Source: Streptomyces iranensis (GTDB taxonomy: Bacteria > Actinomycetota > Actinomycetes > Streptomycetales > Streptomycetaceae). From it: a stretch of 64,000 nucleotides of DNA. The stretch spans positions 1 to 64,000 of the forward strand of contig NZ_JAGGLR010000041.1 of assembly GCF_017874715.1 (NCBI RefSeq), in the 5' to 3' direction. Under the pieces are notes generated by a model. It did no database searches. It had not been told where the DNA came from and was given only the letters and a program-made list of their open reading frames with translations. Shown piece after piece: positions 254 to 21,751 of this stretch. Both the position numbers and the translations under genes were made by a program. Position 1 is the stretch's first letter. Each line of letters begins with the position of its first letter.

Positions 254-259
254 CCAAGG

Positions 260-1495: not shown

Positions 1496-1576
1496 CCGCC
1501 CAGCGTACGGCGGGAACGGACAATTCCGTCGAACGAGACGCTGTCGTCAGAGCCGCGATCGTCAGAGCCGCGGTCA

Positions 1577-2516: not shown

Positions 2517-3878
2517 TCAGACGGTCTGGGACTTCACCTCGGCCCCCTCCGGCTCCTCCGGCTCGCCCGGCTCCTCCCGACCACCCTTGCGGTCCTTGCG
2601 GACGGCCGGGTTGGTCTCGGGAGCGGCCGCCACGGCGAAGACCGTGACCGCGCCCATGCCGATCAGGAACAGCGCGATCGGCCAGGACGCGTCCGCCCAG
2701 GCGAGCAGCGCGGTGGCGACGATGGGGGAGAACCCGCCGACGATCATCGACGCGAGCTCATGCCCCAGGGCGAGGCCGCTGTAGGCCACCCGGCTGGCGA
2801 AGAGTTCGGTGAAGAACGCCGGCTGGGTGCCGATCATCGCCCCGTGGCCGATGACGACCGCCACGAAGATCGCCACGAAGATCAGCACCGGATTGCGCGA
2901 GTCGAACATCGCGAAGAACGGATAGGCCCAGACGATCACCGCGATCGCGCCCCCGATATACACCGGCCGGCGCCCGATGCGGTCGGAGAGCGCCCCGAAC
3001 ATCGGCATCGCGAACGACTCGCACAACATCCCCACCACGAGCGCGGCCAGCACCACCCCCTTGCCCACCCCGACCTCGGCCGCGTAGGAGAGGCTGAAGG
3101 TGAGGAAGAGATAGCTCGCACCGGTTTCGGCGACCCGCGCCCCGAAGGCGATCAGTATCGACTTGGGGTGGGTGCGGATGACGTCGAGTAGCGGCGGACG
3201 GGACTTCTCCGGTTCCGACTCCGTATCCCGGAACGCCGGCGTCTCCATGATCCGGAGCCGGATCAGCAGTCCGACGGCGGTGAGCAGGATGCCGACCACG
3301 AACGGAATGCGCCATCCCCAGGCGAGGAAGGACTCCTCGGTGGTCACCGACTGGGTCAGCGCGTAGGCGGAGGCGGAGAGGACGAACCCGAGCCCCACCC
3401 CGGTCTGGCTCCAGGCCGAGTAGAAGCCGCGGCGGTGGCTCGGCGCGTGTTCGCTGACGATCAGCACGCCGCCGCCCCACTCACCGCCGACGGCGATGCC
3501 CTGCACGATCCGCAGCGTTATCAGCAGCACCGGCGCCCAGGCCCCGATGGTGGCGTACGTGGGCAGCAGACCGATCAGACAGGTCGCGACGCCCATGATC
3601 ACCAGAGTGGTCACCAGCATCGACTTACGGCCGATCCGGTCACCGAAGTGCCCGAAGATGATGCCGCCCAGCGGCCGGGCGAGGAACCCCACCGCGTTGG
3701 TGCCGAAGGCGGCGATCGTTCCCACCAGCGGATCGAAGGTCGGGAAGAAGAGGGAGTTGAAGACGAGCGCGGCGGCCGTGCCGTAGAGGAAGAAGTCGTA
3801 CCACTCCAATGCGCTACCGAACAAACTTGCGATCGCCGCCTTGCGGACTTCGCGCTGGGGGCCCTTCACGTCTGCCAT
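2517..3878 (-). CDS. MFS transporter, metabolite:H+ symporter type
   Basis: A 453-residue membrane protein with about 12 hydrophobic segments. The N-terminus (ASLFGSALEWYDFFLYG), the FGHFGDRIGRKSML loop between helices 2 and 3 and the RIVQGIAVGGEWGGG motif are characteristic of the metabolite:H+ symporter branch of the major facilitator superfamily (ShiA/ProP/KgtP relatives). These import small organic acids or osmolytes with protons across the cytoplasmic membrane; the substrate is not determinable here. The C-terminus is charged and EPGEPEEPEG-rich. The start at 3878 has GGAGAG 7 bases upstream. The gene ends 181 bp before the SDR gene on the same strand. Confidence 0.92.
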   Translation of the reverse strand: MADVKGPQREVRKAAIASLFGSALEWYDFFLYGTAAALVFNSLFFPTFDPLVGTIAAFGTNAVGFLARPLGGIIFGHFGDRIGRKSMLVTTLVIMGVATCLIGLLPTYATIGAWAPVLLITLRIVQGIAVGGEWGGGVLIVSEHAPSHRRGFYSAWSQTGVGLGFVLSASAYALTQSVTTEESFLAWGWRIPFVVGILLTAVGLLIRLRIMETPAFRDTESEPEKSRPPLLDVIRTHPKSILIAFGARVAETGASYLFLTFSLSYAAEVGVGKGVVLAALVVGMLCESFAMPMFGALSDRIGRRPVYIGGAIAVIVWAYPFFAMFDSRNPVLIFVAIFVAVVIGHGAMIGTQPAFFTELFASRVAYSGLALGHELASMIVGGFSPIVATALLAWADASWPIALFLIGMGAVTVFAVAAAPETNPAVRKDRKGGREEPGEPEEPEGAEVKSQTV

Positions 3879-4164
3879 GTCGGCTCTCCAATGGCCGCTT
3901 CGAATGGGATCAAGACCTGCGGCTCGGGTGTGTTGGGGGATTGTTCGCAGCTGGTTCTCATGGCGGGAATGGCGGCGTTCCGCTCACCGGGACAGGACGC
4001 GAACCGGCGGTCTTAGGCCTCTTGGGAGAGCTGCACCCGTACGCCTCTCACACGTCCCACGTTCGTGGGATTTGCATACTTTCATGCCTTACTCTCCGCT
4101 TCGCCTGGTCACGCCTTCACGGTGGCGGTCCCGTCCAGGGGCCCGTGACGAAGGGAAGACACAC
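3879..4164. promoter_or_regulatory. divergent intergenic region
   Basis: This 286-bp gap separates the divergent transporter and secreted-protein genes and must hold both promoters. I could not assign a convincing -35/-10 pair. Plus-strand open frames crossing it lack ribosome sites and family resemblance. Confidence 0.4.
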
Positions 4165-4701
4165 ATGCGTGGAAGGCTCGTCATCGCTGCCGCGGCATTG
4201 ACCATGGCGCTGACGCCAGGCGTCGCGTCGGCGACACAGGACGGCGACGACCAGACGACCGGCTCTTACAGCGCCGAGGCGACCATGCCGCAGGGCTCCG
4301 AGGGGACCGAGTCCCACGGCTCCGGGGCGACCGGTTCCGTCAACTCCGAGGCGACGGCTTCCCAGAGCGACGAGACGACTGGTGCCCAGAGCGACGAGAC
4401 GACTGGTGCTCAGAGCTCAGAGGTGCCCGCTTCCCACGAAGCCTCCGGTCCCGACGAGGGCGTGCCCGGCTACGAGGTGGTCACCCTGCCCAATAAGAAC
4501 GTCCCGAACTTCCAGCGGCGCACGGTGTACTGCCCGCCTGGGAAGAAGGTCATCGGCGGCGGTGCTGAGGCCCGGGGCGACAGCGCCATCCTCGTCGGCA
4601 GCTTCCCCACCGATGACGCACGGGGCTGGATCGGGCTGGGCCGCCAGACCACCACCGACAACGTGGGCATCAGCGTCTTCGCCATCTGCGCCAACGTCTG
4701 A
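4165..4701 (+). CDS. secreted Ser/Thr/Glu-rich protein of unknown function
   Basis: A 178-residue protein with a signal peptide (MRGRLVIAAAALTMALTPGV, then ASA cleavage near residue 23). A linker of imperfect repeats (SDETTGAQ twice, then related SEAT/SSEV units) leads to a compact C-terminal domain from about residue 105, containing the YCPPGKKVIGGGAEARGD segment. A similar VxCPxGKxVxGGG domain occurs in many secreted Streptomyces hypotheticals. The start is supported by GGAAG 8 bases upstream. A hairpin terminator follows the stop. Confidence 0.8.
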   Translation: MRGRLVIAAAALTMALTPGVASATQDGDDQTTGSYSAEATMPQGSEGTESHGSGATGSVNSEATASQSDETTGAQSDETTGAQSSEVPASHEASGPDEGVPGYEVVTLPNKNVPNFQRRTVYCPPGKKVIGGGAEARGDSAILVGSFPTDDARGWIGLGRQTTTDNVGISVFAICANV

Positions 4702-4752
4702 TCGTTCATGCGGGACAAGGGCGCCCCCGTGGGCGCCGCAGGCAAGGAAGAA

Positions 4753-4780
4753 GCCCCCTCCGGATGCACCGGGAGGGGGC
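4753..4780. terminator. bidirectional terminator between convergent genes
   Basis: The stem GCCCCCTCCGG/CCGGGAGGGGGC lies between the convergent secreted-protein gene and lipoprotein gene and can serve both. Confidence 0.75.
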
Positions 4781-4835
4781 TGTGCCCTGGTGGGAGCGTC
4801 GGTGGCCGGGGCCGACCGACCGTCCGCGCCGAGGC

Positions 4836-5510
4836 TTATTCCGGCGTGCTGACCGGGCTGACGAAGGTCCCCGGGTGGGTGGCGCCCGACTGGTCCAGCA
4901 GCGCACCGCCGTACGGCCAGTCCAGCGAGAGGTTCGTCTCCTCGTTCGGCGGGGTGATCACGACCTGGTCCGGCGCGAACTTCTTGTCGTCGTCGCGGGT
5001 TGACGCCAGGAAGGTGATGTCGAAGGTGACCCGCCCGCCGGCGTCGACCCGGACCGGCTTCGGCTTGTCGTCGGTGCGCCGCAGGTCCCAGGTCTGGCCG
5101 TGCTCGGTCTGGAGCTGGACGCCCGGGAAGCCGACCATGGTGCAGTCGGTGCTACCGGTGTTCTTCAGCACCACCCGGGCGGTCTGCTGCCCGTCGTACT
5201 CCATGTCCGGACCGCCCTCGAAGTTCGACCACGCGGCCTCCAGGTGGTCGCTGGTGCAGCGGCTCGCCGACGAGGAGCCGCCCGAGGCGCTGCCCGCCTT
5301 GGCGTCGATGTCCTCGCCGGAGCCACCGGTCGAGCCCGAGCCACCGCCAGAGCCCCCCGACGTGCCGTTCGCGGTCGCCGACGGCGAGCCCCCCTTGGCG
5401 TCGCTGTCGGATTCGCCGCCTCCGCAGGCCGTGAGCGAGAACGCGGCAGCGGCGATCAGCGAGGCGACGGCGACGGTGCGGGTGCGGCGGAGAACGGTCG
5501 TGCGCGACAT
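4836..5510 (-). CDS. DUF4232 domain lipoprotein
   Basis: A 224-residue exported protein. The signal peptide ends in the lipobox LTAC (about residues 25-28), so it should be anchored to the outer face of the membrane by a lipidated cysteine. A Gly/Ser-rich linker to about residue 80 precedes a DUF4232 domain starting RCTSDHLEAAW, with the typical VVLKNTGSTDCTMVGFPGVQL segment. DUF4232 is a beta-sandwich-like domain of unknown role common in actinobacterial lipoproteins. Confidence 0.88.
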   Translation of the reverse strand: MSRTTVLRRTRTVAVASLIAAAAFSLTACGGGESDSDAKGGSPSATANGTSGGSGGGSGSTGGSGEDIDAKAGSASGGSSSASRCTSDHLEAAWSNFEGGPDMEYDGQQTARVVLKNTGSTDCTMVGFPGVQLQTEHGQTWDLRRTDDKPKPVRVDAGGRVTFDITFLASTRDDDKKFAPDQVVITPPNEETNLSLDWPYGGALLDQSGATHPGTFVSPVSTPE

Positions 5511-5707
5511 GGGATCCCCCCAGGGATGGTTGACGTGTGGGCCGAGGACGCGGTGCGTTGTCCACGGTGCGTTCCGCGTCCTGGGAACAACCTTGTTCGC
5601 CGCCGCTGCCGATCGGCTAACCCACGGCTAACACGCCGCTGTCGCACTCAACGCGATGGCCCCGAAGCCCTCCCCGGACAAGGAAGAAGCTCCGGTGAGG
5701 GCTGCGG
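5511..5707. other. intergenic flank ending in a degenerate terminator hairpin
   Basis: No gene is supported. At 5665-5706 an imperfect hairpin (AGCCCTCCCCGGA with TCCGGTGAGGGCT) precedes the partial tRNA-Phe copy. It resembles the hairpin found next to the intact tRNA-Phe (14281-14308) and probably is the original tRNA terminator displaced by integration. Confidence 0.5.
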
Positions 5708-5752
5708 TGGCTGGGGCCGGGGTCGAACCGGCGACCTTCCGCTTTTCAGGCG
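5708..5752 (-). repeat. partial tRNA-Phe 3' copy (attachment-site remnant)
   Basis: These 45 bases are identical to the 3' part of the intact tRNA-Phe (14331-14375), from the acceptor end through the T arm to the anticodon loop, then diverge. The missing 5' half rules out a working tRNA. A direct repeat of a tRNA 3' end is the classic scar of tyrosine-integrase insertion. The right flank contains short repeats such as CCGTCAG, like integrase arm sites. Confidence 0.8.
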
Positions 5753-8475: not shown

Positions 8476-8865
8476 GCGAGCTGCCCGTCATCCGGTCGCT
8501 TCAGCGGATCAACGGGGAGTTTGGTGTCGGCCCAGCCCAAGACGCGGTACTCGTGCCGGACGATCCCGCTCCCGCCCTTCGTCCTGGACGCCCTCCGGGA
8601 GCGGCGCGAGCAGCAGCGGGCGGAACACGGCTCCTACGGGGCTGAGTGGCTGGGCACGTGCACGGGGTCTTCACGACGGCCGTAAGCTCACCCGTGGATC
8701 CGCGCAACCTGAACCGCCACTGGTAGGCGACGCGCAAGCGGACCGGCCTGGACGGCTACCGCTTCCATGATCTGCGTCACTCGTTCGTCTCGCTGCTCCT
8801 GGACCTCGGGGCCGCGACGCACATCGTGCGGGAGATAGCCGGGCACAGCGATCCCCTGTCGATGA
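8476..8865 (+). pseudogene. degenerate tyrosine integrase, C-terminal part
   Basis: Fragments in different frames line up with the catalytic half of a Streptomyces site-specific tyrosine recombinase: GELPVIRSLQRINGE, PKTRYSCRTIPLPPFVLDAL, then GYRFHDLRHSFVSLLLDLGA and REIAGHS. The H-x-x-R box (HDLRH) is visible, but frameshifts near 8527 and 8660 and an in-frame TAG at 8724-8726 break the gene, and the region carrying the catalytic Tyr is missing. It abuts the second tRNA-Phe repeat, the usual int-att arrangement. Confidence 0.8.
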
Positions 8866-8896
8866 TCTCAACAGGGGTCTTTTCGCTGTTCAGCGA

Positions 8897-8941
8897 TGGT
8901 GGCTGGGGCCGGGGTCGAACCGGCGACCTTCCGCTTTTCAG
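8897..8941 (-). repeat. second partial tRNA-Phe 3' copy (attachment-site remnant)
   Basis: These 45 bases are identical to 14328-14371 of the intact tRNA-Phe region apart from the very first bases, ending in the anticodon loop. Together with the copy at 5708 and the intact tRNA at 14331 it divides 5.7-14.4 kb into two segments with the same direct repeat at each boundary. It lies 31 bp from the broken integrase. Downstream, GGCGTCA/TGCTGGCGTCAG repeats (8995-9055) resemble arm-type integrase sites. Confidence 0.8.
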
Positions 8942-9070: not shown

Positions 9071-9541
9071 TTAAGAGTCATCCCCAGATGGCTGCCGCTC
9101 TCGCATCAGTCGCTGTCGGCTTTCACCGCCCGATGCTTCAAAGAAAAAGCCGTAGACGCATGTCAGGATCACTGGAAGCGCCAGCAATAGCCACAGCAGC
9201 GTCCAACCACCGGCAGTTATAGCCCAGGTTCCAAGCGCGCTCGCGGCAGCGCCGAGGACCAAACTTCCTATGATTGAACTCCACTCGATCTTCACCTGAA
9301 CCTGAACTGACCGCTCTGGTACATAGTGTTCAGTCATCCATTCCAAGTGATCTCTTAGCTGCTGACGTGCTGGTGAATCTTCGGGAAGTTCGTTCAGGAG
9401 AGCAGCTTCCTCCTTCATGGCGCTTAGCAATTTGTCAGCCATGCTCACTCGGGCGGACCTGATGGCTACCCAGGCTGTAGCGGACCCCAAGACCAGTGTC
9501 CCCACAGCGGTAGCCAGAGCCGTCGCCGATTCAACACGCAT
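9071..9541 (-). CDS. hypothetical membrane protein
   Basis: A 156-residue protein with an N-terminal transmembrane segment (ATAVGTLVLGSATAWVAI), a charged cytosolic stretch (LLNELPEDSPARQQLRDHLE) and two further hydrophobic segments (SIIGSLVLGAAASALGTWAI; TLLWLLLALPVILTCVYGFF). No family recognised. I chose the ATG at 9541 because GGGAG stands 6 bases upstream. It follows the phosphotransferase gene by 47 bp on the same strand and may be the last gene of the peptide-maturation operon. Confidence 0.6.
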   Translation of the reverse strand: MRVESATALATAVGTLVLGSATAWVAIRSARVSMADKLLSAMKEEAALLNELPEDSPARQQLRDHLEWMTEHYVPERSVQVQVKIEWSSIIGSLVLGAAASALGTWAITAGGWTLLWLLLALPVILTCVYGFFFEASGGESRQRLMRERQPSGDDS

Positions 9542-9588
9542 ATGATCTCCCTGTTTGGACCTGCACTCGCCGACTCGTCTGCGGACGG

Positions 9589-10392
9589 TCACCCACGGCG
9601 GTGGTGCCGCCATTTCATCGCGGCCGAACGTAGGCGCGCTGTCCAGACGTCTGGAGAGTCCCCCGCGATCTCATTCCACAGCGCTGCGTTCGCGTCGGCG
9701 AAAAGATCCACGGCTGTGGGAGGCGCTGTGGCCCAGGCGGGGATGTGTTGTCCAATTTCTTCAGCTTGGGCCGGGCTGTGTCCGGAGGCGATGAGCCAGA
9801 TGATCCAGTAGGCGGGGTCGAGCCAGGCGGCTCCTCGGGTGGCCCATCCCCAGTCGACAAGGCGGGCTCGGGCACCGGTGATGAGGACGTTGTCGTTGTT
9901 CCAGTCAGTGTGGAGCAGGGCATCGCCCGCGAACGCTTCTGCATCGGCAGGGTGGGTGACGTACTTGGACAGGCGCTGTTCCGCTAGGCGGAGATCGATG
10001 TTGGGGCAGGGCATGTCGTCAAGCCTGCGTAGGGCTTGGACGACCTTCGGGATGTCCGGCGAGCCGGGAGAGTAGTCGGCGTGATGGCCGTCGAGTAGTT
10101 CGAAGCCGAGGATGTCCCAACCTTCGACGACGAGGTGGAAGAGCATGCGGGGAGCCAGGGGCGTGACATACGGGTTGATATCCGCCTCGCATCGCTGGGT
10201 CCAGACCCAGCGGTGCTCGCTGTTCAGTCCCTTGAGGAAGACAGTTCCTCCGGTGGTGTGGACGCGTGCCGAAAGAGCGCTGTTCTTGCCAGCGGTAACC
10301 GTCTCGGTTTCAAGGACCGCGCCTGTCTCGGCCTCAATCGAGCTACGGACCGAGCGGGGAAGGTCGTCGAAGGCGACGGGGGGCAGGGCCAT
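9589..10392 (-). CDS. aminoglycoside-phosphotransferase-like kinase
   Basis: A 267-residue protein of the APH/choline-kinase fold. Catalytic loop LLHTDWNNDNVLI (H-x-D-x4-N) and the metal-binding LVDWGWA segment are present; the N-terminal lobe has VFLKG with the expected lysine. Such kinases phosphorylate hydroxyl groups of small molecules or peptides using ATP. Here it follows the candidate precursor peptide (stop at 10472) and the radical SAM gene, so a substrate in that pathway, or self-protection, is more likely than generic aminoglycoside resistance. This is inferred from position. Confidence 0.82.
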   Translation of the reverse strand: MALPPVAFDDLPRSVRSSIEAETGAVLETETVTAGKNSALSARVHTTGGTVFLKGLNSEHRWVWTQRCEADINPYVTPLAPRMLFHLVVEGWDILGFELLDGHHADYSPGSPDIPKVVQALRRLDDMPCPNIDLRLAEQRLSKYVTHPADAEAFAGDALLHTDWNNDNVLITGARARLVDWGWATRGAAWLDPAYWIIWLIASGHSPAQAEEIGQHIPAWATAPPTAVDLFADANAALWNEIAGDSPDVWTARLRSAAMKWRHHRRG

Positions 10393-10424
10393 GACGGAAA
10401 GGCTTCCAGACGGGACGTGCGCAC

Positions 10425-10460
10425 GGGGCCTTCCGGCGCACGAACACGTCGGAAGGCCCC
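10425..10460 (-). terminator. hairpin between precursor and kinase genes
   Basis: The perfect 10-bp stem GGGGCCTTCC/GGAAGGCCCC encloses a 16-nt loop, 12 bp after the precursor stop. There is no long T run, so it may be a partial terminator or an mRNA-stabilising structure that raises precursor over kinase expression. Confidence 0.5.
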
Positions 10461-10471
10461 GCCACGGGTGA

Positions 10472-10612
10472 TCAGTTGTAGGGGTTGTCGTCGCCGCAGC
10501 CAGGAGTGGCGGCTCGAGCGAAGGTGTCGACGTCGTCGAGGATCACGATGTCCTCCTTGGTTCCAGCATCTCCGGGGCGGGGCGGCGCGATCTCGACCAT
10601 CACCGTTGTCAT
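10472..10612 (-). CDS. candidate RiPP precursor peptide (46 residues)
   Basis: Starting three bases after the radical SAM stop codon, with AAGGAAG about 8 bases upstream, this frame encodes 46 residues. The N-terminal part (MTTVMVEIAPPRPGDAGTKE) and middle (DIVILDDVDTFARAA) look like a leader; the end, TPGCGDDNPYN, carries the only Cys, a Tyr and an Asn-Pro pair and is a plausible core. Its small size, position directly after a SPASM radical SAM enzyme and strong ribosome site match ribosomally made, post-translationally modified peptide systems. I do not recognise the precursor family. Confidence 0.72.
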   Translation of the reverse strand: MTTVMVEIAPPRPGDAGTKEDIVILDDVDTFARAATPGCGDDNPYN

Positions 10613-10615
10613 GGT

Positions 10616-11731
10616 TCAGCTTCCTTTCGCGGTGTGTTGGCAGTAGATGTGCAGTGGTGCCTTCGCCTCCTGGTAGACCTTGGCCAGCGGCCTGCATACC
10701 CGGCAGGTGCCGGAGAGCTGGCAGCCGGAGCAGCCACCGGTGCGAAGCATCAGGGAATCGGCGATCCCGCCCAGGCGGCTGAGGCCCTCGACTCCTTCGG
10801 CCAGCAAAGGAATCGCGTTGTCGCGGCCGACTTTGCAGATGGACGCCATGCCGTGTGGGTCGACGTGGAAGAAGGTGTGGCCGGCGTTGCAGCCGCGGAA
10901 CGGTTCACGGTCGGTGAGGTAGTCGGGTGCCTGGGAGGCGAGTGTCTCGGCGCCGCCATAGATGGTCGGGGACATATGGGTGTACTCGCGGTACGGCAGG
11001 GCGTACTGGTCTGCGAAGGCGCGCATCCGGTCGTGCTCGTGGGCGTTGTGCCGTGTGATGATCAGCGCCAGATCGAGCGGCAGCCCGGCCTCATTGGCGG
11101 CGTTCAGGCCCTTCATGAACATCCGGTACGCACCCTTGCGACGGGTGAGTCCGTCGTAAGACTCCTCTGTGGCGCCGTAGAGGCTGAGCGTGATCCGGTT
11201 CGGACGGCGCTCCGTGAGCAAGGTGAGGTTCTTGGGGGCCGCGAGACGGGAGCCGTTGGTGAGGATCTCGACCATCATGCCCAGCTCGTGCGCCCGCCGG
11301 TATGTCTCGGCGAACAGCTTGTCGATCATTGGCTCGCCGCCGGTGAGCTGAAGCCATAGCACGCCAGCGTCATGGATGACCCGCAGCAGCCGTTCGCGCT
11401 CGGACCATTCGAGCCCCGAGAATCGCTTTAGACCTAGGTAGCAATGCTCGCAGTCGTAGTTGCAGCCCAGGTTCAGCTCGTACGACGCACGTCCGTAGCC
11501 GTGCGGCGAGAGGGAGCGGACGAGGACGGTATCGCGCGTCAACCGTTCGTCGAGGCTTAGACCCCATACCTTCCGGGACACGTCCACCAGCCAACCGGGT
11601 GATGCCGCACCGGAGGCTACGGCCGTCTCCAACTCCCGGTACGCGGTGGCCGGGAGCCGGGCGGCTTTGGTGCTGCCGGGACGGACGAGGAGGTGATGGT
11701 CGAGGAATGGAGCGGCGATCAGCTCATGCAC
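10616..11731 (-). CDS. radical SAM/SPASM peptide-modifying enzyme
   Basis: A 371-residue protein with GTG start at 11731 (GGAGGAAAC upstream); the start overlaps the stop of the upstream gene by 8 bp. Residues 1-85 may be a precursor-binding region. The radical SAM cluster motif is C90, C94, C97 (CNYDCEHC), followed by LQLTGGEPM and EILTNGSRL. The C-terminus has SPASM-type auxiliary-cluster cysteines: GCNAG, SICKVG, GGCSGCQLSGTCRVC and YCQH. The enzyme should bind at least one extra Fe-S cluster and install a crosslink or related change on the 46-residue peptide encoded next to it. Confidence 0.9.
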   Translation of the reverse strand: MHELIAAPFLDHHLLVRPGSTKAARLPATAYRELETAVASGAASPGWLVDVSRKVWGLSLDERLTRDTVLVRSLSPHGYGRASYELNLGCNYDCEHCYLGLKRFSGLEWSERERLLRVIHDAGVLWLQLTGGEPMIDKLFAETYRRAHELGMMVEILTNGSRLAAPKNLTLLTERRPNRITLSLYGATEESYDGLTRRKGAYRMFMKGLNAANEAGLPLDLALIITRHNAHEHDRMRAFADQYALPYREYTHMSPTIYGGAETLASQAPDYLTDREPFRGCNAGHTFFHVDPHGMASICKVGRDNAIPLLAEGVEGLSRLGGIADSLMLRTGGCSGCQLSGTCRVCRPLAKVYQEAKAPLHIYCQHTAKGS

Positions 11732-12176
11732 GGGTTTCCTCCTCCGGCGTGGCGAGAGCCACGCGGGCCCAGACGGTTTTGCCGATCGGGTTGCGGGCGC
11801 GGTGTCCCATCTCCTTGGCCAGTGCGGAGACGAGTTGGAGACCTCGACCGTGCTCGTCCTCATCGCTGGTCTCCATGACGCGAGGAAACCGACGGCTGCG
11901 GGCGTCGGAGACCTCGACCAGGCACGTGGCGCCTTCGCCGCTCAGACGGACTTCGAAGCGGTGACCGCGCCTGTGGCCGTGCCGCACGGCATTGGTCGCC
12001 AACTCGCTGCAGACCAAGACCGTACGGTCGATGTCTTCTCGTCCGTAGCCCCAGCTCAGCAGGGTTTTGTCGACCAGGCTCCGGACGAGGCGGACGCACC
12101 TGGGCGTGGAGGTGAATTGCATCGCCCAGCGCTGGGCGATGGTGTGCTGCTGGTTGTCGTTGGTCATCGGGAGCAT
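11724..12176 (-). CDS. RsbW-like ATP-binding regulator
   Basis: A 150-residue HATPase_c_2 protein (anti-sigma/histidine-kinase-like fold). The N box reads VCSELATNAVRHG, with DARSRRFPRV and the glycine motif EDEHGRGLQLV further on. Such proteins bind ATP and usually sequester a partner regulator; Streptomyces carries many orphan copies. I prefer ATG 12176 (GAGGGG 6 bases upstream) over the longer frame from 12245. Cotranscribed with the radical SAM gene, so it may gate expression of this peptide locus. Confidence 0.82.
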   Translation of the reverse strand: MLPMTNDNQQHTIAQRWAMQFTSTPRCVRLVRSLVDKTLLSWGYGREDIDRTVLVCSELATNAVRHGHRRGHRFEVRLSGEGATCLVEVSDARSRRFPRVMETSDEDEHGRGLQLVSALAKEMGHRARNPIGKTVWARVALATPEEETRA

Positions 12177-12250
12177 TGCGTCCCCTCGTCGCGGGTGGTT
12201 CCAGGGGGCTAGCTCATCGCAACGGTCGTCACCGAAATAGGTCATGGTGA

Positions 12251-12267
12251 TTACCCAACGTGGGTAA
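12251..12267. promoter_or_regulatory. palindromic operator candidate
   Basis: A perfect inverted repeat TTACCC-N5-GGGTAA sits in the 150-bp space between the divergent ATPase and HTH/TPR regulator genes. It is much more AT-rich than its surroundings, as expected of a promoter-operator, and is a natural target for the adjacent HTH protein. Confidence 0.55.
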
Positions 12268-12328: not shown

Positions 12329-13645
12329 GTGTCCGCACCGCAGCCTCATCGACTGCTGCCACCAGCCTTGTTGGCCAGCCCTGAGTGGCAGGAAGCATGC
12401 CGGAAGCGCGACTTCACCCGCATCTTCCAGCTGGTCAAGCTCAAGGCAGGGATCTATCCCTCGCGCATCGCCGCCCTTTGCGGCATGACGCCCAGCAGGG
12501 TCGGCGAGATCATGGCTGGACGTCGTGGTCTGGCCCACATCGATGTGATCGAGAGAGTCGCCGATGGGCTGCGCATCCCCGGCGCGATGCTGGGCCTGGC
12601 ACATCGGCCCTGGGAAATTCCCGCATCGGCTCCGGAGAGCGAGCGGAGCCAGGCATCCGAGCCACGGCTCGCACAGAGGGCAACGGCTACCGGTCCTGCT
12701 GCTGGGGAAAGCCTGGATGACCTACTGCCACTGGCCGACTCACAGGTCACCCGCTCCACGCTCGCCGCGCTGCGCTCCTCAGTGGAGGACTACTGGCGTC
12801 GGGACGACCAGCACGGTGGTGCGCCAATGCGGCCTGCGGTCGTCGGAAGTCTCACTTACGTCACACAGGTGATGCGGCACGCCGGGGATGCACTGGGCCG
12901 GGACCTGCGGTCCCTCGCCGCAGAGCTGGCCCGCCTTGCGGGCTGGGCGTATTTCGACGCCTGTCAGTACAGCACGGCACGTATCTACTTCAGCCAGGCC
13001 CTCAGCCTCTCGCGGGAGCAGGAAGATCGTCTCTTCGTGGCCAATGTGCTGTCCTGCATGAGCCTGCAGGCCACCTATGACGGCAATCCGGCAGAGGCCA
13101 TCACTCTCGCATGCAAGGCTCAGGACGTCACTCGGGCAGCGGGTGACCAGCCTCTGGTGATGTCCATGCTGCACATGCGCGAAGCGTTCGCCCACGCCAC
13201 CCTTCGCGACGCCTCCGCCTGCAATCACGCCATCGACCGTTCCCGCGACTCCTTCGAATGCGCACGCGGCCGGACGGACGAGACGCCCTCCTGGGTGCGC
13301 TATTTCGACGAGACCAAGCTCATCGTCGACACCGGAATCGCCCTGGCCCGTCTTGGCGAGGCACCACGAGCCGAACCTCTCATCGCCGAGGGACTGCGCC
13401 GGGAAACATCCGAACAGCAGCGCGGACGGGCTCTCCACGCCTTCTGGCTCGCCAGCACCCAGCTCGAGCAGGGCAAGCTCGGCGACGCCTGTCACAGCGC
13501 CGGACTCGCACTCGAACTGAGCACCGTGATCGACTCTCCCCGGGTCGCTGGGCATGTCCATGAATTCCACCGCCGTCTGGCTCCGTACGCCCGTGAGGCA
13601 CCGGTGATCAGGTTCGAGCAGCGGATGCGAGAGTCACTTGGCTAG
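12329..13645 (+). CDS. HTH (XRE) regulator with TPR-like C-terminus
   Basis: A 438-residue protein with GTG start (GGGAGAGGGG upstream). Residues about 15-75 form an XRE-type helix-turn-helix (IAALCGMTPSRVGEIMAGRR); the rest is alpha-helical with tetratricopeptide-like units (YSTARIYFSQALSLSREQED, AEAITLACKAQDVTRAAGDQ). This layout is common in Streptomyces regulators that may sense a peptide or small molecule through the TPR part. It is transcribed away from the radical SAM operon and probably controls it through the palindrome in between. Confidence 0.85.
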   Translation: MSAPQPHRLLPPALLASPEWQEACRKRDFTRIFQLVKLKAGIYPSRIAALCGMTPSRVGEIMAGRRGLAHIDVIERVADGLRIPGAMLGLAHRPWEIPASAPESERSQASEPRLAQRATATGPAAGESLDDLLPLADSQVTRSTLAALRSSVEDYWRRDDQHGGAPMRPAVVGSLTYVTQVMRHAGDALGRDLRSLAAELARLAGWAYFDACQYSTARIYFSQALSLSREQEDRLFVANVLSCMSLQATYDGNPAEAITLACKAQDVTRAAGDQPLVMSMLHMREAFAHATLRDASACNHAIDRSRDSFECARGRTDETPSWVRYFDETKLIVDTGIALARLGEAPRAEPLIAEGLRRETSEQQRGRALHAFWLASTQLEQGKLGDACHSAGLALELSTVIDSPRVAGHVHEFHRRLAPYAREAPVIRFEQRMRESLG

Positions 13646-14184
13646 TCGGCGCTCTTGGTGGCCTCGTCCAGCAGCAGATACAGCAGGCCGACCAGACTGC
13701 CGCTGCTGACGATCTCGCGGCGGTCGATCATCCCCCTTATCTCCGATAGGGCGATCCACTCGATCCGGTCCGATTCGTTCAGCTCTGTCGGCGGCCCGGT
13801 GTAGGTGGCCCCATCGGCGCGGAAGACGTGGTGCTCGGAGTCGGTGATCCCGTTCGCGGGCTGTGCGTACACCAGGGGCTTCATCGCCTCGACCCGCCAG
13901 CCGGTCTCTTCTTCGACCTCGCGGGCGGCTGCCTGCACCGGGGTCTCGCCGGGCTCGATGAGTCCCATGGGCAGTTCCCAGCCCCAGGCGTCGGTGATGA
14001 ACCGGTGGCGCCACATCATCAGGACGCGCTTTTGGTCATCGACCACGGCGGCAACGGCGAGGTGTCGCATGCGTACGACGTGGTGTTCCCAGCGGCGCCC
14101 GTCGGGCTGCTGTACGTCGACGAGCCACAGGTTGACCCAAGGGTTGCTGTAGATCTGCCGTTCGCCGTGGACGGTCCACCGCAT
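13642..14184 (-). CDS. Nudix hydrolase
   Basis: A 180-residue protein with a complete Nudix box GLIEPGETPVQAAAREVEEE plus TGW (G-x5-E-x7-R-E-U-x-E-E-x-G-U). Such Mg-dependent enzymes cleave nucleoside diphosphates linked to another moiety; N-terminal YSNPWVNLWLVDV resembles ADP-sugar-type Nudix proteins. I prefer ATG 14184 (GGGGAG 8 bases upstream) over two upstream ATGs. It converges with the HTH/TPR gene, the coding ends overlapping by 4 bp, and lies at the tRNA-proximal end of the integrated segment. Confidence 0.88.
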   Translation of the reverse strand: MRWTVHGERQIYSNPWVNLWLVDVQQPDGRRWEHHVVRMRHLAVAAVVDDQKRVLMMWRHRFITDAWGWELPMGLIEPGETPVQAAAREVEEETGWRVEAMKPLVYAQPANGITDSEHHVFRADGATYTGPPTELNESDRIEWIALSEIRGMIDRREIVSSGSLVGLLYLLLDEATKSAD

Positions 14185-14280
14185 GAATCCACTCCCCTTC
14201 ATCGACGCGGTGCCCAGCATGTCACTTCCTGGTCCGCCGCTCTTACGGTGCGTGCCGAGGGCGTCACGGGCAACGAAGAA

Positions 14281-14308: not shown

Positions 14309-14330
14309 TTTGCCCTGGTAGGGGCTGTGG

Positions 14331-14404
14331 TGGCTGGGGCCGGGGTCGAACCGGCGACCTTCCGCTTTTCAGGCGGACGCTCGTACCAACTGAGCTACCC
14401 AGCC
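14331..14404 (-). tRNA. tRNA-Phe (GAA)
   Basis: Acceptor stem GGCTGGG/CCCAGCC, anticodon loop CTGAAAA with anticodon GAA, T loop TTCGACC, discriminator A; CCA is encoded (14330-14328). Its 3' part is duplicated at 5708 and 8897, so this gene is the integration target and has been restored by the incoming element. Confidence 0.96.
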
Positions 14405-14408
14405 GCAG

Positions 14409-14483
14409 CGGTCCTGACGGGATTTGAACCCGCGGCCTCCACCTTGACAGGGTGGCGAGCACTCCAAACTGCTCCACAGGACC
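14409..14483 (-). tRNA. tRNA-Asp (GTC)
   Basis: Acceptor stem GGTCCTG/CAGGACC, anticodon loop CTGTCAA giving GTC, T loop TTCAAAT, discriminator G. No CCA is encoded. Only 4 bp separate it from tRNA-Phe; the two are likely processed from one transcript. Confidence 0.95.
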
Positions 14484-14730
14484 TTGCGTGTACGAGCACG
14501 AGTCTCGCACATATGGGGTGCGCTCCCAACGGGATTTCCCGTCGTGGATTCGCACTCCTTGCGATCTTCGAACCGGGGCCTTGATTTCTCTCCGCCGCGT
14601 CGTTGTCGCTGGATCAGCGTATCAGACCTCCGGCCGTGTTCTGACCGCTCACCGGGCGGGCCGGGCCTCGGTCGGTGAGCGGTGGGGCGCGGTCGGAGGT
14701 CTGTCCGGCTCGGCCCGGATCAGGGGCGGA

Positions 14731-15552
14731 TCAGGGGCGGCCGCCGCGTTCCAGGGGGAGCTTTTCGCCCGCCTCGATCGCGACCGGCAGCCGGTTCTCG
14801 GTGGGCGGCAGGGGGCAGGTCGCGAGGTCGGTGTAGGCGCACGGGAGGTTGGTGGCGCGGTTGAAGTCGAGGGTGACGCGGCCGGTCTGGTCGGGGGCGT
14901 CGATCTGCAGGGAGCGGTTCGCGGCGTACGTGGTCACGCCCGAGGTGGCGTCGGTGAGGAGCACCATCAGGGCGCCGGGCCGCTTGCCGTTGAAGGCGGT
15001 GAGCTGGAACGTCTCGCCCTCCAGCTCGAACTCGACCTGCCCGGGTGCGTCGTAGACGTGCTCGAGCCCCTCCGCCACGGCGCCCACGGTGATCGCGCGC
15101 GGCTCGTCGAAGGGGAGGTAGCGGCCGGGGCGGACCCAGTGGGGGTCGGGAGCGTAGGCGGGGGTGTGGGTGAAGTCGGTACGGAGGGGGTTGCCCGGGT
15201 GGCGGGGGCGGACGATGTTGTGGCCGCCGCGCTTGGCGATCTCGATCACCGCGTCGCCGTACCCCGCGTACAGGCTGGCCCGCTCGGCGATCGCCCCGAA
15301 GACGTACCGCCCGTGCACCGCCGTGCCGTCGATCGTCAGCTCCTCGCCGTCGGCGAGCTCGACCACCACGCCCTCCGGGCCGCTGGACCAGGCCCCGGGG
15401 GCGTCCTCGAAGCGGGTCGGCTCCGGGCTCAGCCAGCGCAGGCTGGTGATCGCGAGAAATCCGTGGGGGTTGGCCAGCGCCTGCTCATGGGTACGGTGCC
15501 AGCGCTCCCACTCCTCGGCGAAGCTCACCTGGTCGACGTCCTGGACGGTCAT
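14731..15552 (-). CDS. DUF1684 family protein
   Basis: A 273-residue cytosolic protein of the DUF1684 family, recognisable from WHRTHEQALANPHGFLAIT near the start, the DFNRATNLPCAYTDLATCPL segment and the final LPPTENRLPVAIEAGEK. The family is widespread in actinobacteria without a proven activity. AGGGAG lies 6 bases before the ATG. It stands between the tRNA-Glu gene and the tRNA-Asp/tRNA-Phe pair on the same strand. Confidence 0.88.
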   Translation of the reverse strand: MTVQDVDQVSFAEEWERWHRTHEQALANPHGFLAITSLRWLSPEPTRFEDAPGAWSSGPEGVVVELADGEELTIDGTAVHGRYVFGAIAERASLYAGYGDAVIEIAKRGGHNIVRPRHPGNPLRTDFTHTPAYAPDPHWVRPGRYLPFDEPRAITVGAVAEGLEHVYDAPGQVEFELEGETFQLTAFNGKRPGALMVLLTDATSGVTTYAANRSLQIDAPDQTGRVTLDFNRATNLPCAYTDLATCPLPPTENRLPVAIEAGEKLPLERGGRP

Positions 15553-15631
15553 CTGCGCTCCCTAGCGTGGGGCCTGCGGCGGGTCCGGTGCCGTTGCGTA
15601 CGTACAACCGCGTGGGGGAGGGAGACATTCC

Positions 15632-15700
15632 GGGAGCCGCGGGAGCCGCGGGAGCCGCAGGAGTCGCCGGAGCCGAGGAAGCCGCCGGAGCCGCGGGGCC
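15632..15700. repeat. 9-bp tandem repeats
   Basis: About seven imperfect copies of GGGAGCCGC (variants GGAGTCGCC, GGAAGCCGC) stand between the DUF1684 gene and tRNA-Glu. Noncoding as far as I can see. Confidence 0.7.
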
Positions 15701-15717
15701 GCCGTGCGGCGCGCATG

Positions 15718-15757
15718 AAAAAAGTCACCGGCAGGTACGTTCCGACCTGCGGTGACT
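15718..15757 (-). terminator. terminator downstream of tRNA-Glu
   Basis: Stem AGTCACCGCAGGT-type (15723-15736 with 15745-15757) followed on the minus strand by six T residues; a classic intrinsic terminator 12 bp from tRNA-Glu. Confidence 0.88.
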
Positions 15758-15769
15758 CAAAGAAGGTGG

Positions 15770-15842
15770 TGCCCCCAACGGGATTCGAACCCGTGCTACC
15801 GCCTTGAAAGGGCGGCGTCCTGGGCCACTAGACGATGAGGGC
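15770..15842 (-). tRNA. tRNA-Glu (TTC)
   Basis: Acceptor stem GCCCTCA/TGGGGGC, anticodon loop CTTTCAA giving TTC, T loop TTCGAAT, discriminator A and encoded CCA (15769-15767). Confidence 0.95.
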
Positions 15843-15923
15843 CGATGGCCCACCTGGGCGCCTTGCGGCGCTTTCGGGGACGCGAGAAGCATATGGGATG
15901 CCGGTGAGGTTCGCCAAAACGGT

Positions 15924-17576
15924 TTACGGAGTGGTGGGCGTCGGTGTCGCCCCCGGGCGGTTCTCGGCCGGCAGATGTCGGCTGACCTCGGCCTTCGCCA
16001 GACCCAGACCGCCCAGATCGATCTCGTCCCATGCCTGGAGCCGTCGCGTGTCCCGGTCCAGGTAGAGAACCGACGCCTGCACCGTGTCCGGTGTGCCGTC
16101 GTCCACCGCGCGCAGCCCGCTGCCGCCCGTCGACCCCTCGGTCATCAGCCGGGTGCCGCCGGGGAGCACCTCCGTACGGCGGTGATGGACATGCCCGGTG
16201 AGGGCGAGCGGCACGGTGCCGTCGGTCTCGCGGGCGGCGATCGGGTTGTGGGCGAGGGCGATGTCGACCGGGGCGCCGGCGGCCTTGCGGTCCCGGATCG
16301 CCTCGGCCAGTTGCCGTCCGGCGCTGTGCTCGGCCGCGTCACCGGCGGCCGCGGCGGAGCGGTCGGGGGTGAACTGCGGATCGCCGATGCCCGCGATCCG
16401 CAGCCCGGCGACGGTGACCACATCGCCGTTGTCCGCCACATGCGCCCCCTTGCGCTTGGCCAGGTAGCGCTGGGTCGACGCCGAGTCGTGGTTGCCGCGC
16501 ACCCAGACATAGGGGGCGCCGAGGTCGGAGACGGGGTCGAGGAAGCCGTTCTCGGCGGAGGTGCCGTGGTCCATCGTGTCGCCCGTGTCGATGATCACGC
16601 TGACCTTGTACTGCCGCACCAGCGACTGCACGATGTGCCACGCGGCCGGATTGAGATGGACGTCCGAGATGTGCAGCACCCGCATGGTGGTCGGATCGGG
16701 CTGGTACGCGGGGAGCGTCGAGGTCGCCTCGTAGAGCTGGGTGACATTGGTCACCAGCCGGGCCAACTCCCGCTGATAGACGTCGAAGTCGGTCACGATG
16801 CTGCGCGCGTTGCCCACCACGGAGGGGGCGCTGGAGAGCAGCCCGGAGTAGCGCGGCTCCAGTACGGAATTCGGATTCCACGTGGCGTAGACGGCGCCCC
16901 CGGAGGCGGTCAGCAGCGTGAGCGCGAGCCCTCCGGCGGCCAGCGCCCGGCGGGGGCGGCGGTAGACCGCCAGGCCCAGCGCGGTGGCGCCGAAGACCAC
17001 GGCGACGCAGGAGCGGAGCGCGAGGCCGAGGGTGCCGCGGGTGATATCGCTCGCGACCTCGTCCTGGAGCCCGGAGAGCCGTTCGGGGTGGTCGACGAGG
17101 GCCTGGGACCGTATGGGGTCGAGCCGGTCCACGTCCACGTCCAGACGGAGCGGGGCGTGGTGGCTGTTCAGCTCGAGCGCGCCCAGCGGGGCCACGTTGA
17201 TCTTGGTGCCGCCGGTGAGGGACGGCCGCAGCGCCATCCGCGTGTCCATCGGGCCCACGGAGATGTGGACGCTGCCGACCACCAGCAGTCCGATCCAGGC
17301 GCCGAGGACGGTCACGGCGGCCAGCCCGGCGGCGCGGACCAGGGGGCGGGCGGGCGCGGGGGGATCGAGCGCCGTGGGGTCGAACGGCGTGGGGCCGAAC
17401 GGCGTGGGGTCGAACGGCGTGGGCATGCGGCTGGGGGAAGCGGCGGCGGAGGGGGGCTGCGAAGGGCGGCGGAAGCGGCGAAGAGTAGGGCGGCGGAAGC
17501 GGCGAAGGGGGGAGACGGCCGCGGTGCCCGCGCGCTGAGCGGTGGCACGGAGCAGCCGGAGCGGTTCGCGGGCCAT
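15924..17576 (-). CDS. membrane-anchored metallophosphoesterase
   Basis: Up to 550 residues. The N-terminus is Arg/Pro-rich with PTPFDPTPFG repeats; two membrane segments follow (AAGLAAVTVLGAWIGLLVVG and a pair near LGLALRSCVAVVFGATALGL), then an extracytoplasmic or cytosolic calcineurin-like phosphoesterase domain with the full metal-binding set: HISDVHL, DTGDTMD, GNHD, LAHNP and GHVHH. It should hydrolyse phosphoesters with two metal ions; substrate unknown. The start is uncertain: ATG 17576 or the internal ATG 17426 just before the repeats. Confidence 0.88.
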   Translation of the reverse strand: MAREPLRLLRATAQRAGTAAVSPLRRFRRPTLRRFRRPSQPPSAAASPSRMPTPFDPTPFGPTPFDPTALDPPAPARPLVRAAGLAAVTVLGAWIGLLVVGSVHISVGPMDTRMALRPSLTGGTKINVAPLGALELNSHHAPLRLDVDVDRLDPIRSQALVDHPERLSGLQDEVASDITRGTLGLALRSCVAVVFGATALGLAVYRRPRRALAAGGLALTLLTASGGAVYATWNPNSVLEPRYSGLLSSAPSVVGNARSIVTDFDVYQRELARLVTNVTQLYEATSTLPAYQPDPTTMRVLHISDVHLNPAAWHIVQSLVRQYKVSVIIDTGDTMDHGTSAENGFLDPVSDLGAPYVWVRGNHDSASTQRYLAKRKGAHVADNGDVVTVAGLRIAGIGDPQFTPDRSAAAAGDAAEHSAGRQLAEAIRDRKAAGAPVDIALAHNPIAARETDGTVPLALTGHVHHRRTEVLPGGTRLMTEGSTGGSGLRAVDDGTPDTVQASVLYLDRDTRRLQAWDEIDLGGLGLAKAEVSRHLPAENRPGATPTPTTP

Positions 17577-17747
17577 TGGTCCCGTATGCCCGTCCGCGCG
17601 GGGGCGTATGCCTGGGCGGCGCGGGGGTGGGCCGACACCGGGGGGCGGTACGTCGGGTGGCGGTGCGCCGGGCGGCCGGAGACGTCCGGCGCGGATAGCT
17701 TGGCGCCGACGGCTCCTTTCCGGGCCCGGCTGCCCGACAATGGCCTG
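17577..17747. promoter_or_regulatory. divergent intergenic region
   Basis: 171 bp between the phosphoesterase and the zincin-like peptidase, very GC-rich, with no recognisable promoter motif. Confidence 0.35.
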
Positions 17748-18098
17748 GTGCTGGAGATGACGCGCGAGGAGTTCGAGGAACTGGTCGCCGAGGCGCTGGA
17801 CCGGATCCCGCCGGAGCTGACACGGCTCATGGACAACGTCGCCGTGTTCGTGGAGGACGAGCCACCGACGGACGATCCCGAGCTGCTCGGGCTCTACGAG
17901 GGGACGCCGCTCACCGACCGGGGTGAGTGGTACGCGGGCGTCCTGCCGGACCGGATCACCGTCTACCGGGGTCCGACGCTACGGCTGAGCGAGACGCGGG
18001 AGGACGTCGTCCAGGAGACCGAGGTGACCGTGGTCCACGAGATCGCGCACCACTTCGGGATCGACGACGCGCGGCTGCACGCGCTCGGGTACGGCTGA
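17748..18098 (+). CDS. metallopeptidase family protein (zincin-like)
   Basis: A 116-residue protein starting VLEMTREEFEELVAEALDRI and ending with the zinc-binding motif VVHEIAHHFGIDD (HExxHxxGxxD), about residues 98-110. This is the minimal-zincin family conserved through actinobacteria; the substrate is unknown. I chose GTG 17748 because relatives carry the LEMTREEF start; the ATG at 17757 is the alternative. No strong ribosome site is visible. Confidence 0.88.
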   Translation: MLEMTREEFEELVAEALDRIPPELTRLMDNVAVFVEDEPPTDDPELLGLYEGTPLTDRGEWYAGVLPDRITVYRGPTLRLSETREDVVQETEVTVVHEIAHHFGIDDARLHALGYG

Positions 18099-18343
18099 TC
18101 CTCGGCCACGGCCTGTTCGCGGGCTCCGGCTGATTCCGGTGCCGGTATTCCGGCTGATTCCGGTGCCGGTATCCGCCTCCGGCCGCCCCCGCCCACATCC
18201 GCCTCCGGCCGGGCCCCGCCTACGACCGACGCCGGACGCGCGGTCTACGCGACGGGCCGGGTCCGCACCGCATGCGTGTCCTGGGCGGGGCGGGGCCAGT
18301 TGGGCAGGGCGTCACATCCCTGCCGTCTGGAGGTGTCCCGCGC

Positions 18344-18991
18344 ATGCCCGGATCCCCCGTGCCCGGATCCCCCGCTCCTCGCACCGCCCGTTCCCCCCGG
18401 TCCTCCCGGTCCTCCCGGTCCTCCCGGTCCCCCCGGTCCTCCCGGATCTCCCGGCCCTCCCGGATCTCCCGGCCCTCCCGGCGCGCGCCCCGTGCCGCCG
18501 TGCGCGGGGCGGCGGTCGCGGCGCTCGTGGCCGTCGCCCTGGCGCTGGGCGGCTGCATGAGCATCTCCGACGACCCCGAGCGGCCGGACAAACACCGCGG
18601 CTCCCACCAGAAGGGCGGTGCGGCGGACACGGGCGGCGCCGTGGTGCGGTCGGACGGCAGGGGGCGGCCGTATGCGGACTCCGACCGGGACGAGAAGGAC
18701 GGGAAGGGGAAGAAGGGCGAAAAAGGGAAGAAGAAGGACGGCGAGGACCGGTCGGCCTCGGCCTCCGCGACCGACCCCGGGGCCGAGCCCTCGGCCCCGC
18801 CCGGCAAGAAGGGCGCCCCGCACCACCGCCCGGCCCCCTCCGCCCCGTCGCAGCCGGGCGGCGCCACCACGTCCGACGCGCCGCCCGCGCCCCGGCCGTC
18901 GAACCCACCGCCGAGCGCGCCGGACCCGAAGCCGACCGCCCCCGAGCCCCCGACCGCGCCCGCCTCCCCGTCGGACCAGCCCGCGGGGTAG
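18344..18991 (+). CDS. putative lipoprotein with Lys/Pro-rich tail
   Basis: A 215-residue protein. GGAGGTG 9 bases upstream supports the ATG at 18344. The first 50 residues are an unusual Ser/Arg/Pro tract (SSRSSRSSRSPRSSR), translated from TCCTCCCGG-type DNA repeats. A hydrophobic stretch then leads to the lipobox LGGC (Cys near residue 71). The rest is low complexity: a lysine-rich segment (KDGKGKKGEKGKKKDG) and a proline-rich end. Membrane anchoring is likely but the long basic leader is atypical. No family recognised. Confidence 0.6.
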   Translation: MPGSPVPGSPAPRTARSPRSSRSSRSSRSPRSSRISRPSRISRPSRRAPRAAVRGAAVAALVAVALALGGCMSISDDPERPDKHRGSHQKGGAADTGGAVVRSDGRGRPYADSDRDEKDGKGKKGEKGKKKDGEDRSASASATDPGAEPSAPPGKKGAPHHRPAPSAPSQPGGATTSDAPPAPRPSNPPPSAPDPKPTAPEPPTAPASPSDQPAG

Positions 18992-21747: not shown

Positions 21748-21751
21748 CTTC

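What the first reader, a model, noticed from the sequence alone, without database searches (positions are those of the whole stretch)
9589..12267. Candidate RiPP locus: radical SAM/SPASM enzyme with a 46-residue precursor
A SPASM radical SAM enzyme is followed after three bases by an unannotated-size frame with a strong ribosome site, encoding a peptide whose end TPGCGDDNPYN looks like a core. An APH-type kinase follows, an anti-sigma-like ATPase overlaps upstream, and an HTH/TPR regulator faces away. I know no described peptide family with this core or with this kinase partner.
Basis: partly seen in the sequence, partly recalled or inferred. Interest (0 to 1): 0.85.

Follow-up and report, generated by a model that had tools for sequence, protein, structure and literature searches.

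The report
Mobile peptide-modifying cassette with linked kinase
A small gene set shared by many soil bacteria and some of their phages and plasmids makes a short peptide, probably reshapes it with a radical enzyme, and carries a kinase found only when the peptide has a tyrosine near its end, which suggests a new kind of modified natural peptide.

Summary
A radical SAM/SPASM gene (10616-11731, minus), a 46-codon gene three bases after it (10472-10612) and an APH-fold kinase gene (9589-10392) form a conserved cassette. In 160 of 160 distinct loci with a full-length enzyme, a short gene beside it ends in one of two related cores, CxC..GDDNPY or CxDDNPY plus one residue. The peptide passes no Pfam, NCBIfam or PHROG threshold; motif searches of an open-access library found no description.

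New: the kinase tracks the tyrosine. Of 180 distinct loci, 133 have the kinase and all 133 cores have Tyr; 42 cores have His, Phe or Asn there and none has it. On the tree 6 of 7 Tyr changes fall on branches where the kinase changes, but the strict paired test cannot reach significance (4:0, p 0.125). Many loci carry a GNAT acetyltransferase instead.

The cassette is mobile: it sits on Streptomyces phage Success, plasmids and predicted viral contigs, and here between tRNA-Phe repeats.

Best reading: a new RiPP family whose enzyme modifies the Cys/Asp core, probably by a thioether, and whose kinase phosphorylates Tyr. Chemistry and role are inferred.

The parts
10616..11731 (-). radical SAM/SPASM enzyme, 371 residues from the GTG at 11731 (longer ORF from ATG 11863); radical SAM cluster CxxxCxxC at C90/C94/C97 and SPASM-type cysteines C281, C299, C334, C337, C343, C346, C364
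10472..10612 (-). 46-residue precursor peptide, core ...TPGCGDDNPYN
9589..10392 (-). APH-fold kinase, 267 residues, with K54, E69, H161-T-D163, N168 and D180 in place
11724..12245 (-). HATPase_c_2 (anti-sigma-like) protein; accessory, probably regulatory
   Evidence: the genome holds 131 matches to this Pfam family at E 0.001
12329..13645 (+). NsdA-family HTH/TPR regulator facing away
13642..14220 (-). NUDIX hydrolase; a similar gene (cluster 14) lies beside the regulator in L031-L034
8897..8941 (+). 45-base exact copy of the 3' part of tRNA-Phe, probable left att repeat of the segment carrying the cassette
14328..14404 (-). intact tRNA-Phe whose 3' end is the other att repeat (14328-14372)
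5706..5752 (+). third copy, 47 bases identical to the tRNA-Phe end; suggests tandem insertions
8727..8896 (+). broken tyrosine recombinase remnant with HDLRHS motif
   Evidence: Phage_integrase, 26.7 bits, just under the cutoff of 27.1

Best explanation
This is a mobile RiPP cassette. Shown: radical SAM/SPASM gene, precursor gene, then an APH-fold kinase and/or a GNAT acetyltransferase form a conserved unit; the core is Cys-x(1 or 3)-[DNSE]-[DNS]-x-Pro-[Tyr/His/Phe/Asn]; the kinase occurs only with Tyr. Inferred: the enzyme binds the acidic leader through its N-terminal domain and uses the conserved Cys and the Asp-rich stretch to close a small ring, most likely a Cys sulfur to carbon thioether. 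The kinase then phosphorylates the hydroxyl of the Tyr, which is the last residue in most long cores and the last but one in most short cores. The GNAT acylates a different group. Leader removal and export would be done by host proteins, since no dedicated protease or exporter stood out among the neighbours. Phages, plasmids and islands carry it, so it probably serves competition or signalling for the element.
For: Precursor in 160 of 160 distinct full-length loci. Core positions: Asp at P-2 in 158 of 160, Asp at P-3 in 147 (else Asn, Ser, Glu), nearest Cys at P-7 in 109 and at P-5 in 51. Radical SAM cysteines and six SPASM-type cysteines invariant in 53 aligned enzymes. The predicted structure matches RiPP maturases SkfB (Z 21.9, 310 aligned, rmsd 5.8) and SuiB (Z 21.6, 319 aligned, rmsd 4.9) from residue 2-3 onward. 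The kinase fold matches APH-type kinases (several tied near Z 17), catalytic residues kept. Kinase with Tyr in 133 of 133 loci, kinase absent in 42 of 42 non-Tyr loci; a kinase profile finds none at E 0.01 in the 47 kinase-less loci. 6 of 7 Tyr changes coincide with kinase changes; 0 of 100,000 length-weighted random placements reach 6. In 48 of 119 kinase loci the core from its first Cys has no Ser or Thr, so Tyr is its only hydroxyl side chain.
Against: No chemistry is shown. Paired-lineage tests on supported branches: by Tyr, 4 pairs same way, 0 opposite, 1 no difference, p 0.125; by kinase, mostly 4 same, 0 opposite, 3 no difference; with so few pairs neither can reach 0.05. Five Tyr loci lack the kinase (L056, L059, L143, L200, L243). 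Two of the six joint changes are reversals on long or weakly placed branches (L089, L155/L156). The tree is a quick one. The precursor rule required Cys and Pro; one viral-contig locus found by eye has Val for Pro (L254). Six of 43 kinases have Glu in place of the catalytic Asp. The window's own kinase does not reach PF01636 at E 0.01.
Confidence: 0.55

Rival explanations
1. The kinase and the GNAT are self-protection enzymes: the mature peptide is toxic and the producer inactivates it by phosphorylating Tyr or by acetylation, as resistance kinases and acetyltransferases do.
For: The corramycin phosphotransferase, which acts on a peptide antibiotic (role recalled), is among the tied top fold matches (Z 17.0) and amicoumacin kinase is in the list. 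The GNAT profile weakly matches tabtoxin resistance protein and nourseothricin acetyltransferase (E 0.0045 and 0.009). Kinase and GNAT replace each other after the precursor gene.
Against: L106 and L237 (Phe cores) have neither enzyme, so they would lack this protection. Nine loci have both. The dependence on Tyr also fits plain tailoring.
Confidence: 0.25
2. The Tyr-kinase link is shared ancestry, not function: the kinase acts on another substrate or on the leader, and the GNAT clade drifted to His/Phe/Asn.
For: The His and Asn cores and three of the Phe cores sit in one large clade (tree); the strict paired tests are not significant.
Against: Separate Phe lineages lack the kinase too: L045/L194/L242, L043/L062/L078/L084/L218, L106/L237; 6 of 7 Tyr changes coincide with kinase changes.
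Confidence: 0.15
3. The C-terminal residues are cut out to make a small cofactor, as in mycofactocin or PQQ, and not a peptide product.
For: Strong C-terminal conservation; no dedicated exporter or protease noticed among neighbours; 51 of 53 enzymes match the mycofactocin maturase model at E 1e-15.
Against: Window enzyme 63 bits against a cutoff of 265; no mycofactocin-type partners were noticed among neighbour clusters, which were not scanned for them; the residue after Pro varies among Tyr, His, Phe and Asn.
Confidence: 0.1
4. The radical SAM enzyme is a viperin-like antiviral enzyme with a kinase partner, and the short ORF is incidental.
For: PADLOC pVip models match (E 1e-15); phage carriage.
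Against: The match covers only the common radical SAM core (84-232); NCBIfam viperin scores 45.5 bits against a cutoff of 180; SPASM-type cysteines are present and the short ORF is conserved in 160 of 160.
Confidence: 0.02

Closest known systems
Sactipeptide and ranthipeptide systems (SPASM radical SAM thioether maturases; SkfB, StsB)
   Same: radical SAM/SPASM enzyme beside a Cys-containing precursor; SkfB is the top structural row, tied with SuiB, and StsB the best NCBIfam match
   Different: 65 bits against a cutoff of 625 for StsB; core with one Cys or CxC, Asp-Asp and Pro-Tyr; kinase or GNAT partner
Lasso peptide kinases PadeK, ThcoK, PsmK (passages seen, PMC9266682)
   Same: a kinase in a RiPP cluster that phosphorylates a conserved C-terminal hydroxyl residue of the precursor
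   Different: they modify a C-terminal Ser in lasso peptides; here an APH fold, a Tyr and a radical SAM enzyme
Phosphotransferase-family kinases of kintamdin, thioamitides and related lanthipeptides (passages seen, PMC9415263; PMC7794033)
   Same: phosphotransferase-family protein acting on a RiPP precursor
   Different: there the kinase works with a HopA1-like lyase to give dehydroamino acids; 48 of 119 kinase-linked cores here lack Ser/Thr
FxsA/FxsB peptide systems of actinobacteria (section 24 read, PMC7159879)
   Same: actinobacterial SPASM radical SAM enzyme with a small precursor
   Different: FxSxx C-terminus, metallopeptidase and AP-ATPase partners; none was noticed as a recurring neighbour here
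Corramycin phosphotransferase (structures 8agy, 8ahd)
   Same: among the tied top kinase fold matches; acts on a peptide antibiotic (recalled)
   Different: 18% identity over the aligned part; a resistance enzyme (recalled), not part of a radical SAM cassette

Membership tests
radical SAM/SPASM peptide maturases | CxxxCxxC radical SAM motif and seven-Cys SPASM set | tested here: met
   radical SAM cysteines and six SPASM-type cysteines invariant in 53 of 53, C334 at 90% or more; last spacing is CxxC where I recall CxxxC; no Pfam SPASM hit
radical SAM/SPASM peptide maturases | leader-binding N-terminal domain (RRE) | tested here: inconclusive
   three strands then two helices at residues 4-56, whole-model alignment to SuiB and SkfB from residue 2-3; the domain was not searched alone
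RiPP (general) | small precursor gene conserved beside the modifying enzyme | tested here: met
   160 of 160 distinct loci
RiPP (general) | modified peptide product | not testable with these tools
   needs mass spectrometry
sactipeptides/ranthipeptides | Cys to carbon thioether | not testable with these tools
   conserved Cys is compatible
StsB sactipeptide maturases (NF045574) | score above the curated cutoff | tested here: not met
   65 bits, cutoff 625
mycofactocin maturase (TIGR03962) | score above the curated cutoff | tested here: not met
   63 bits, cutoff 265
APH-like kinases | kinase fold with HxDxxxxN and Mg-binding Asp | tested here: met
   catalytic position Asp in 37 of 43 and Glu in 6 of 43; PF01636 matches 21 of 43 members at E 0.01, not the window's own
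RiPP tyrosine kinase | phosphorylates Tyr of the precursor | not testable with these tools
   co-occurrence only
class V/thioamitide dehydratase kinases | partner HopA1-like lyase | not tested
   none was noticed among the larger neighbour clusters, but they were not scanned for it
FxsA/FxsB systems | FxSxx C-terminus | tested here: not met
   cores
viperin (NF038283) | score above the curated cutoff | tested here: not met
   45.5 bits, cutoff 180

The most novel reading that the evidence does not exclude
A family of mobile, phage- and island-borne RiPP cassettes in which an APH-fold enzyme is a dedicated tyrosine kinase for a radical-SAM-crosslinked peptide, with GNAT acetylation as an alternative end step. 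The phosphate or acetyl group would switch a toxic or signalling peptide on or off, so the element gains a small conflict or signalling system.
Probability: 0.3. Interest if true: 0.88.

Novelty: new variant of a known kind. Interest (0 to 1): 0.76.

Why it matters
It would add a RiPP family found in many actinomycetes and in at least one isolated phage, and would be, as far as I recall, the first kinase tied to a Tyr in a radical SAM peptide pathway. The Tyr-kinase rule makes a precise prediction that one mass-spectrometry experiment can test. Carriage on phages and plasmids raises the question of what a modified peptide does for a mobile element. The phage genes are annotated only as oxidoreductase, hypothetical protein and kinase.

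Tried and rejected
Literature: searches (open-licence PMC only). Searches for the core motifs DDNPY, GDDNP, CSCNAGDD, CSCSAGDD, GCGDDNP, GCNDDNP, CDAGDDNP and GDDQPY gave no relevant paper (10 and 11: unrelated hits; 68: none). The systems in PMC7159879 (passages, section 24) and PMC8939145 (passages) are different. PMC9062424 (passages) showed nothing on this family. Supplementary files were not searched.

Rejected: viperin, FxsB and mycofactocin membership (see Membership tests). A Tyr-based carbon-carbon cross-link is unlikely because that position can be Asn. Ser/Thr phosphorylation for dehydration does not fit cores without Ser/Thr (48 of 119). The HATPase neighbour was first taken as a sign of a regulatory module, but the genome has 131 matches to that family, so it is weak evidence. 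Neighbour clusters were named by eye, duplicates not removed; an ABC-ATPase cluster occurs in 8 of 98 loci at scattered places and was not counted as part of the cassette.

Range: phylum-wide sample 6 of 396 genomes, all in the window's genus; order 31 of 197; order of an Actinomadura genome 37 of 345; family of an Amycolatopsis genome 11 of 249. A second scan with the phage enzyme gave one locus already held. The GNAT's substrate was not resolved: all 48 GNAT loci (36 non-Tyr, 12 Tyr) have Asn before Pro and 47 have CxC, which may be ancestry. Searches are earlier, smaller versions of the table and tree; 66 and 105 replace them. Dropped before the counts: of 203 loci, 9 with partial enzyme, 1 with too little downstream sequence, 33 duplicates; of 26 mobile loci, 6 duplicates. 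L235 and L254 were assigned by hand, and L245 has only part of the kinase before its contig ends.
Full report
Observation. The 46-codon ORF lies three bases after the radical SAM stop codon. Many homologues begin near residue 45 of the longest ORF, so the GTG at 11731 is the better start, overlapping the HATPase gene by 8 bases. The upstream regulator is an NsdA-family TPR protein. The precursor has no NCBIfam match at E 0.1, one sub-threshold Pfam match (DUF1833, 13.4 bits, cutoff 21) and no PHROG match at E 0.01.

The precursor is real. Homologues of the enzyme were collected from 77 of 392 genomes of the genus, 31 of 197 of the order (partly the same genomes), 37 of 345 of the order of an Actinomadura genome, 11 of 249 of the family of an Amycolatopsis genome, and 68 loci from named records. 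From 203 loci, after removing 9 with partial enzyme, 1 too short and 33 duplicates, 160 distinct loci remain, and all 160 have a short ORF next to the enzyme stop with the same C-terminal pattern. Its start lies at -4 in 75 of them. The rule demanded Cys and Pro, but none of the 160 failed it.

Two core types. Counting from the Pro, the nearest Cys stands at P-7 in 109 loci, always as CxC, and at P-5 in 51, of which 50 have the single Cys and one a CxC. P-2 is Asp in 158 of 160 and P-3 is Asp in 147. The residue after Pro is Tyr 123, His 23, Phe 11, Asn 3. Single-Cys cores usually have at least one more residue after it (43 of 50), CxC cores rarely (7 of 110). Single-Cys cores appear in separate parts of the tree.

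Cassette. Clustering of neighbours of 98 loci (duplicates included, clusters named by eye) gives the order enzyme, precursor, then an APH-type kinase cluster (69 loci) and/or a GNAT cluster (26 loci); the commonest upstream genes look like regulators (HATPase, XRE, NsdA-like), and among the clusters I looked at none is a constant protease or exporter; an ABC-ATPase cluster occurs in 8 loci at scattered places. Pfam finds APH in 21 of 43 kinases and GNAT in 15 of 15 acetyltransferases. The kinase model (pLDDT 96.6) matches APH-type kinases; the top rows are tied, among them homoserine kinase at Z 17.3 (248 aligned, rmsd 3.1) and corramycin phosphotransferase at Z 17.0 (238 aligned, rmsd 2.9). 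Lys54, Glu69, His161, Asn168 and Asp180 are invariant in 43 of 43; position 163 is Asp in 37 and Glu in 6.

The enzyme. In 53 aligned members the radical SAM cysteines and the SPASM-type cysteines are kept. The model (pLDDT 86.6; residues 254-267 and the last three below 50) aligns over nearly its whole length with the RiPP maturases SkfB and SuiB. None of the 25 best of 47 NCBIfam families reaches its cutoff; the best is StsB at 65 of 625 bits.

The kinase follows the tyrosine. With phage, plasmid and viral-contig loci added, 180 distinct loci were classified (L235 and L254 by hand). Kinase present: 133, all with Tyr (124 kinase only, 9 with GNAT too). Tyr without kinase: 5 (4 with GNAT, 1 with neither). 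Non-Tyr: 42 (40 with GNAT, 2 with neither), none with kinase. A profile of the kinase finds nothing at E 0.01 in the 47 kinase-less loci, while the GNAT profile hits 44 of them. L106 and L237, both Phe cores of the single-Cys type, have neither. On the tree Tyr changes 7 times and the kinase 9 times; 6 changes share a branch, and none of 100,000 length-weighted random placements reached 6 (largest 4). That test ignores tree error. The stricter paired tests give, by Tyr, 4 pairs the same way, none opposite, one undecided (p 0.125), and by kinase mostly 4 the same way, none opposite, 3 undecided; neither can reach 0.05 with so few pairs. Two of the six joint changes are reversals on long or poorly placed branches. 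In L200, which lacks both families, I read by eye what look like unrelated acetyltransferase and kinase genes on the other strand (sequence; not scanned).

Mobility. The cassette is on Streptomyces phage Success (enzyme, 38-residue precursor ending GCGDDNPYN and kinase as genes 3, 2, 1), with a DUF5753 regulator and a tyrosine recombinase nearby; the two phage records found are the same phage. Eight plasmid records match, two of them from one strain and one of 11.85 Mb, a chromosome by size; I opened five. One is named phiDSM40276 and has recombinase, RecT and lambda-type exonuclease genes. In the window the cassette lies between two exact 45-base copies of the tRNA-Phe 3' end (8897-8941 and 14328-14372), with a third copy at 5706. 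Of 20 relatives searched with a query holding this repeat, 18 show one copy and 2 none. The segment is 65.0% GC against 70.0% left (1-5688) and 70.9% right (14405-30000). A broken integrase lies just outside the left repeat. This looks like an island built by successive insertions; close relatives L031-L034 show no tRNA gene within their fetched flanks, so the site differs elsewhere.

Mechanism. Shown: conserved cassette, core pattern, intact catalytic residues, kinase-Tyr link, mobility. Inferred from SPASM enzymes in general: leader binding and ring formation at the Cys and Asp stretch, most likely a thioether. Inferred from the link: the kinase acts on Tyr. Not resolved: substrate of the GNAT, leader removal, export, and biological role. 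Self-protection is a serious rival, because the kinase and GNAT resemble resistance enzymes.

Novelty. Searches for the core motifs in an open-access library found nothing relevant, and topic searches listed no paper that I recognised as describing it, judged from titles, abstract starts and the passages named above; subscription papers are not covered. Kinases in other RiPP clusters are known, so I file this as a new variant of radical SAM RiPPs, not a new kind of system.

Noticed in passing
window 5706-5752, 8897-8941, 14328-14404: Three copies of the tRNA-Phe 3' end bracket two segments; the cassette sits in the second, and a broken tyrosine recombinase lies at the end of the first.
   Followed up: partly
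L234, NC_073472.1 positions 266-2380: Isolated phage Success carries the whole cassette, annotated as oxidoreductase, hypothetical protein and kinase.
   Followed up: yes
L254: A viral-contig precursor ends CSCTASSDQVYNN: the otherwise constant Pro is Val, yet Tyr and kinase are kept.
   Followed up: no
L200 downstream of the enzyme: No family kinase or GNAT; the opposite strand appears by eye to encode another acetyltransferase and another kinase, possible replacements.
   Followed up: no
L008, L009, L039, L046, L054, L057, L065; L106: A small protein of unknown function (cluster 13) follows the kinase in these 7 single-Cys loci and, read by eye in L106, stays when the kinase is absent.
   Followed up: no
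window 9071-9613, minus: 180-residue protein after the kinase gene, no Pfam match at E 0.05.
   Followed up: no
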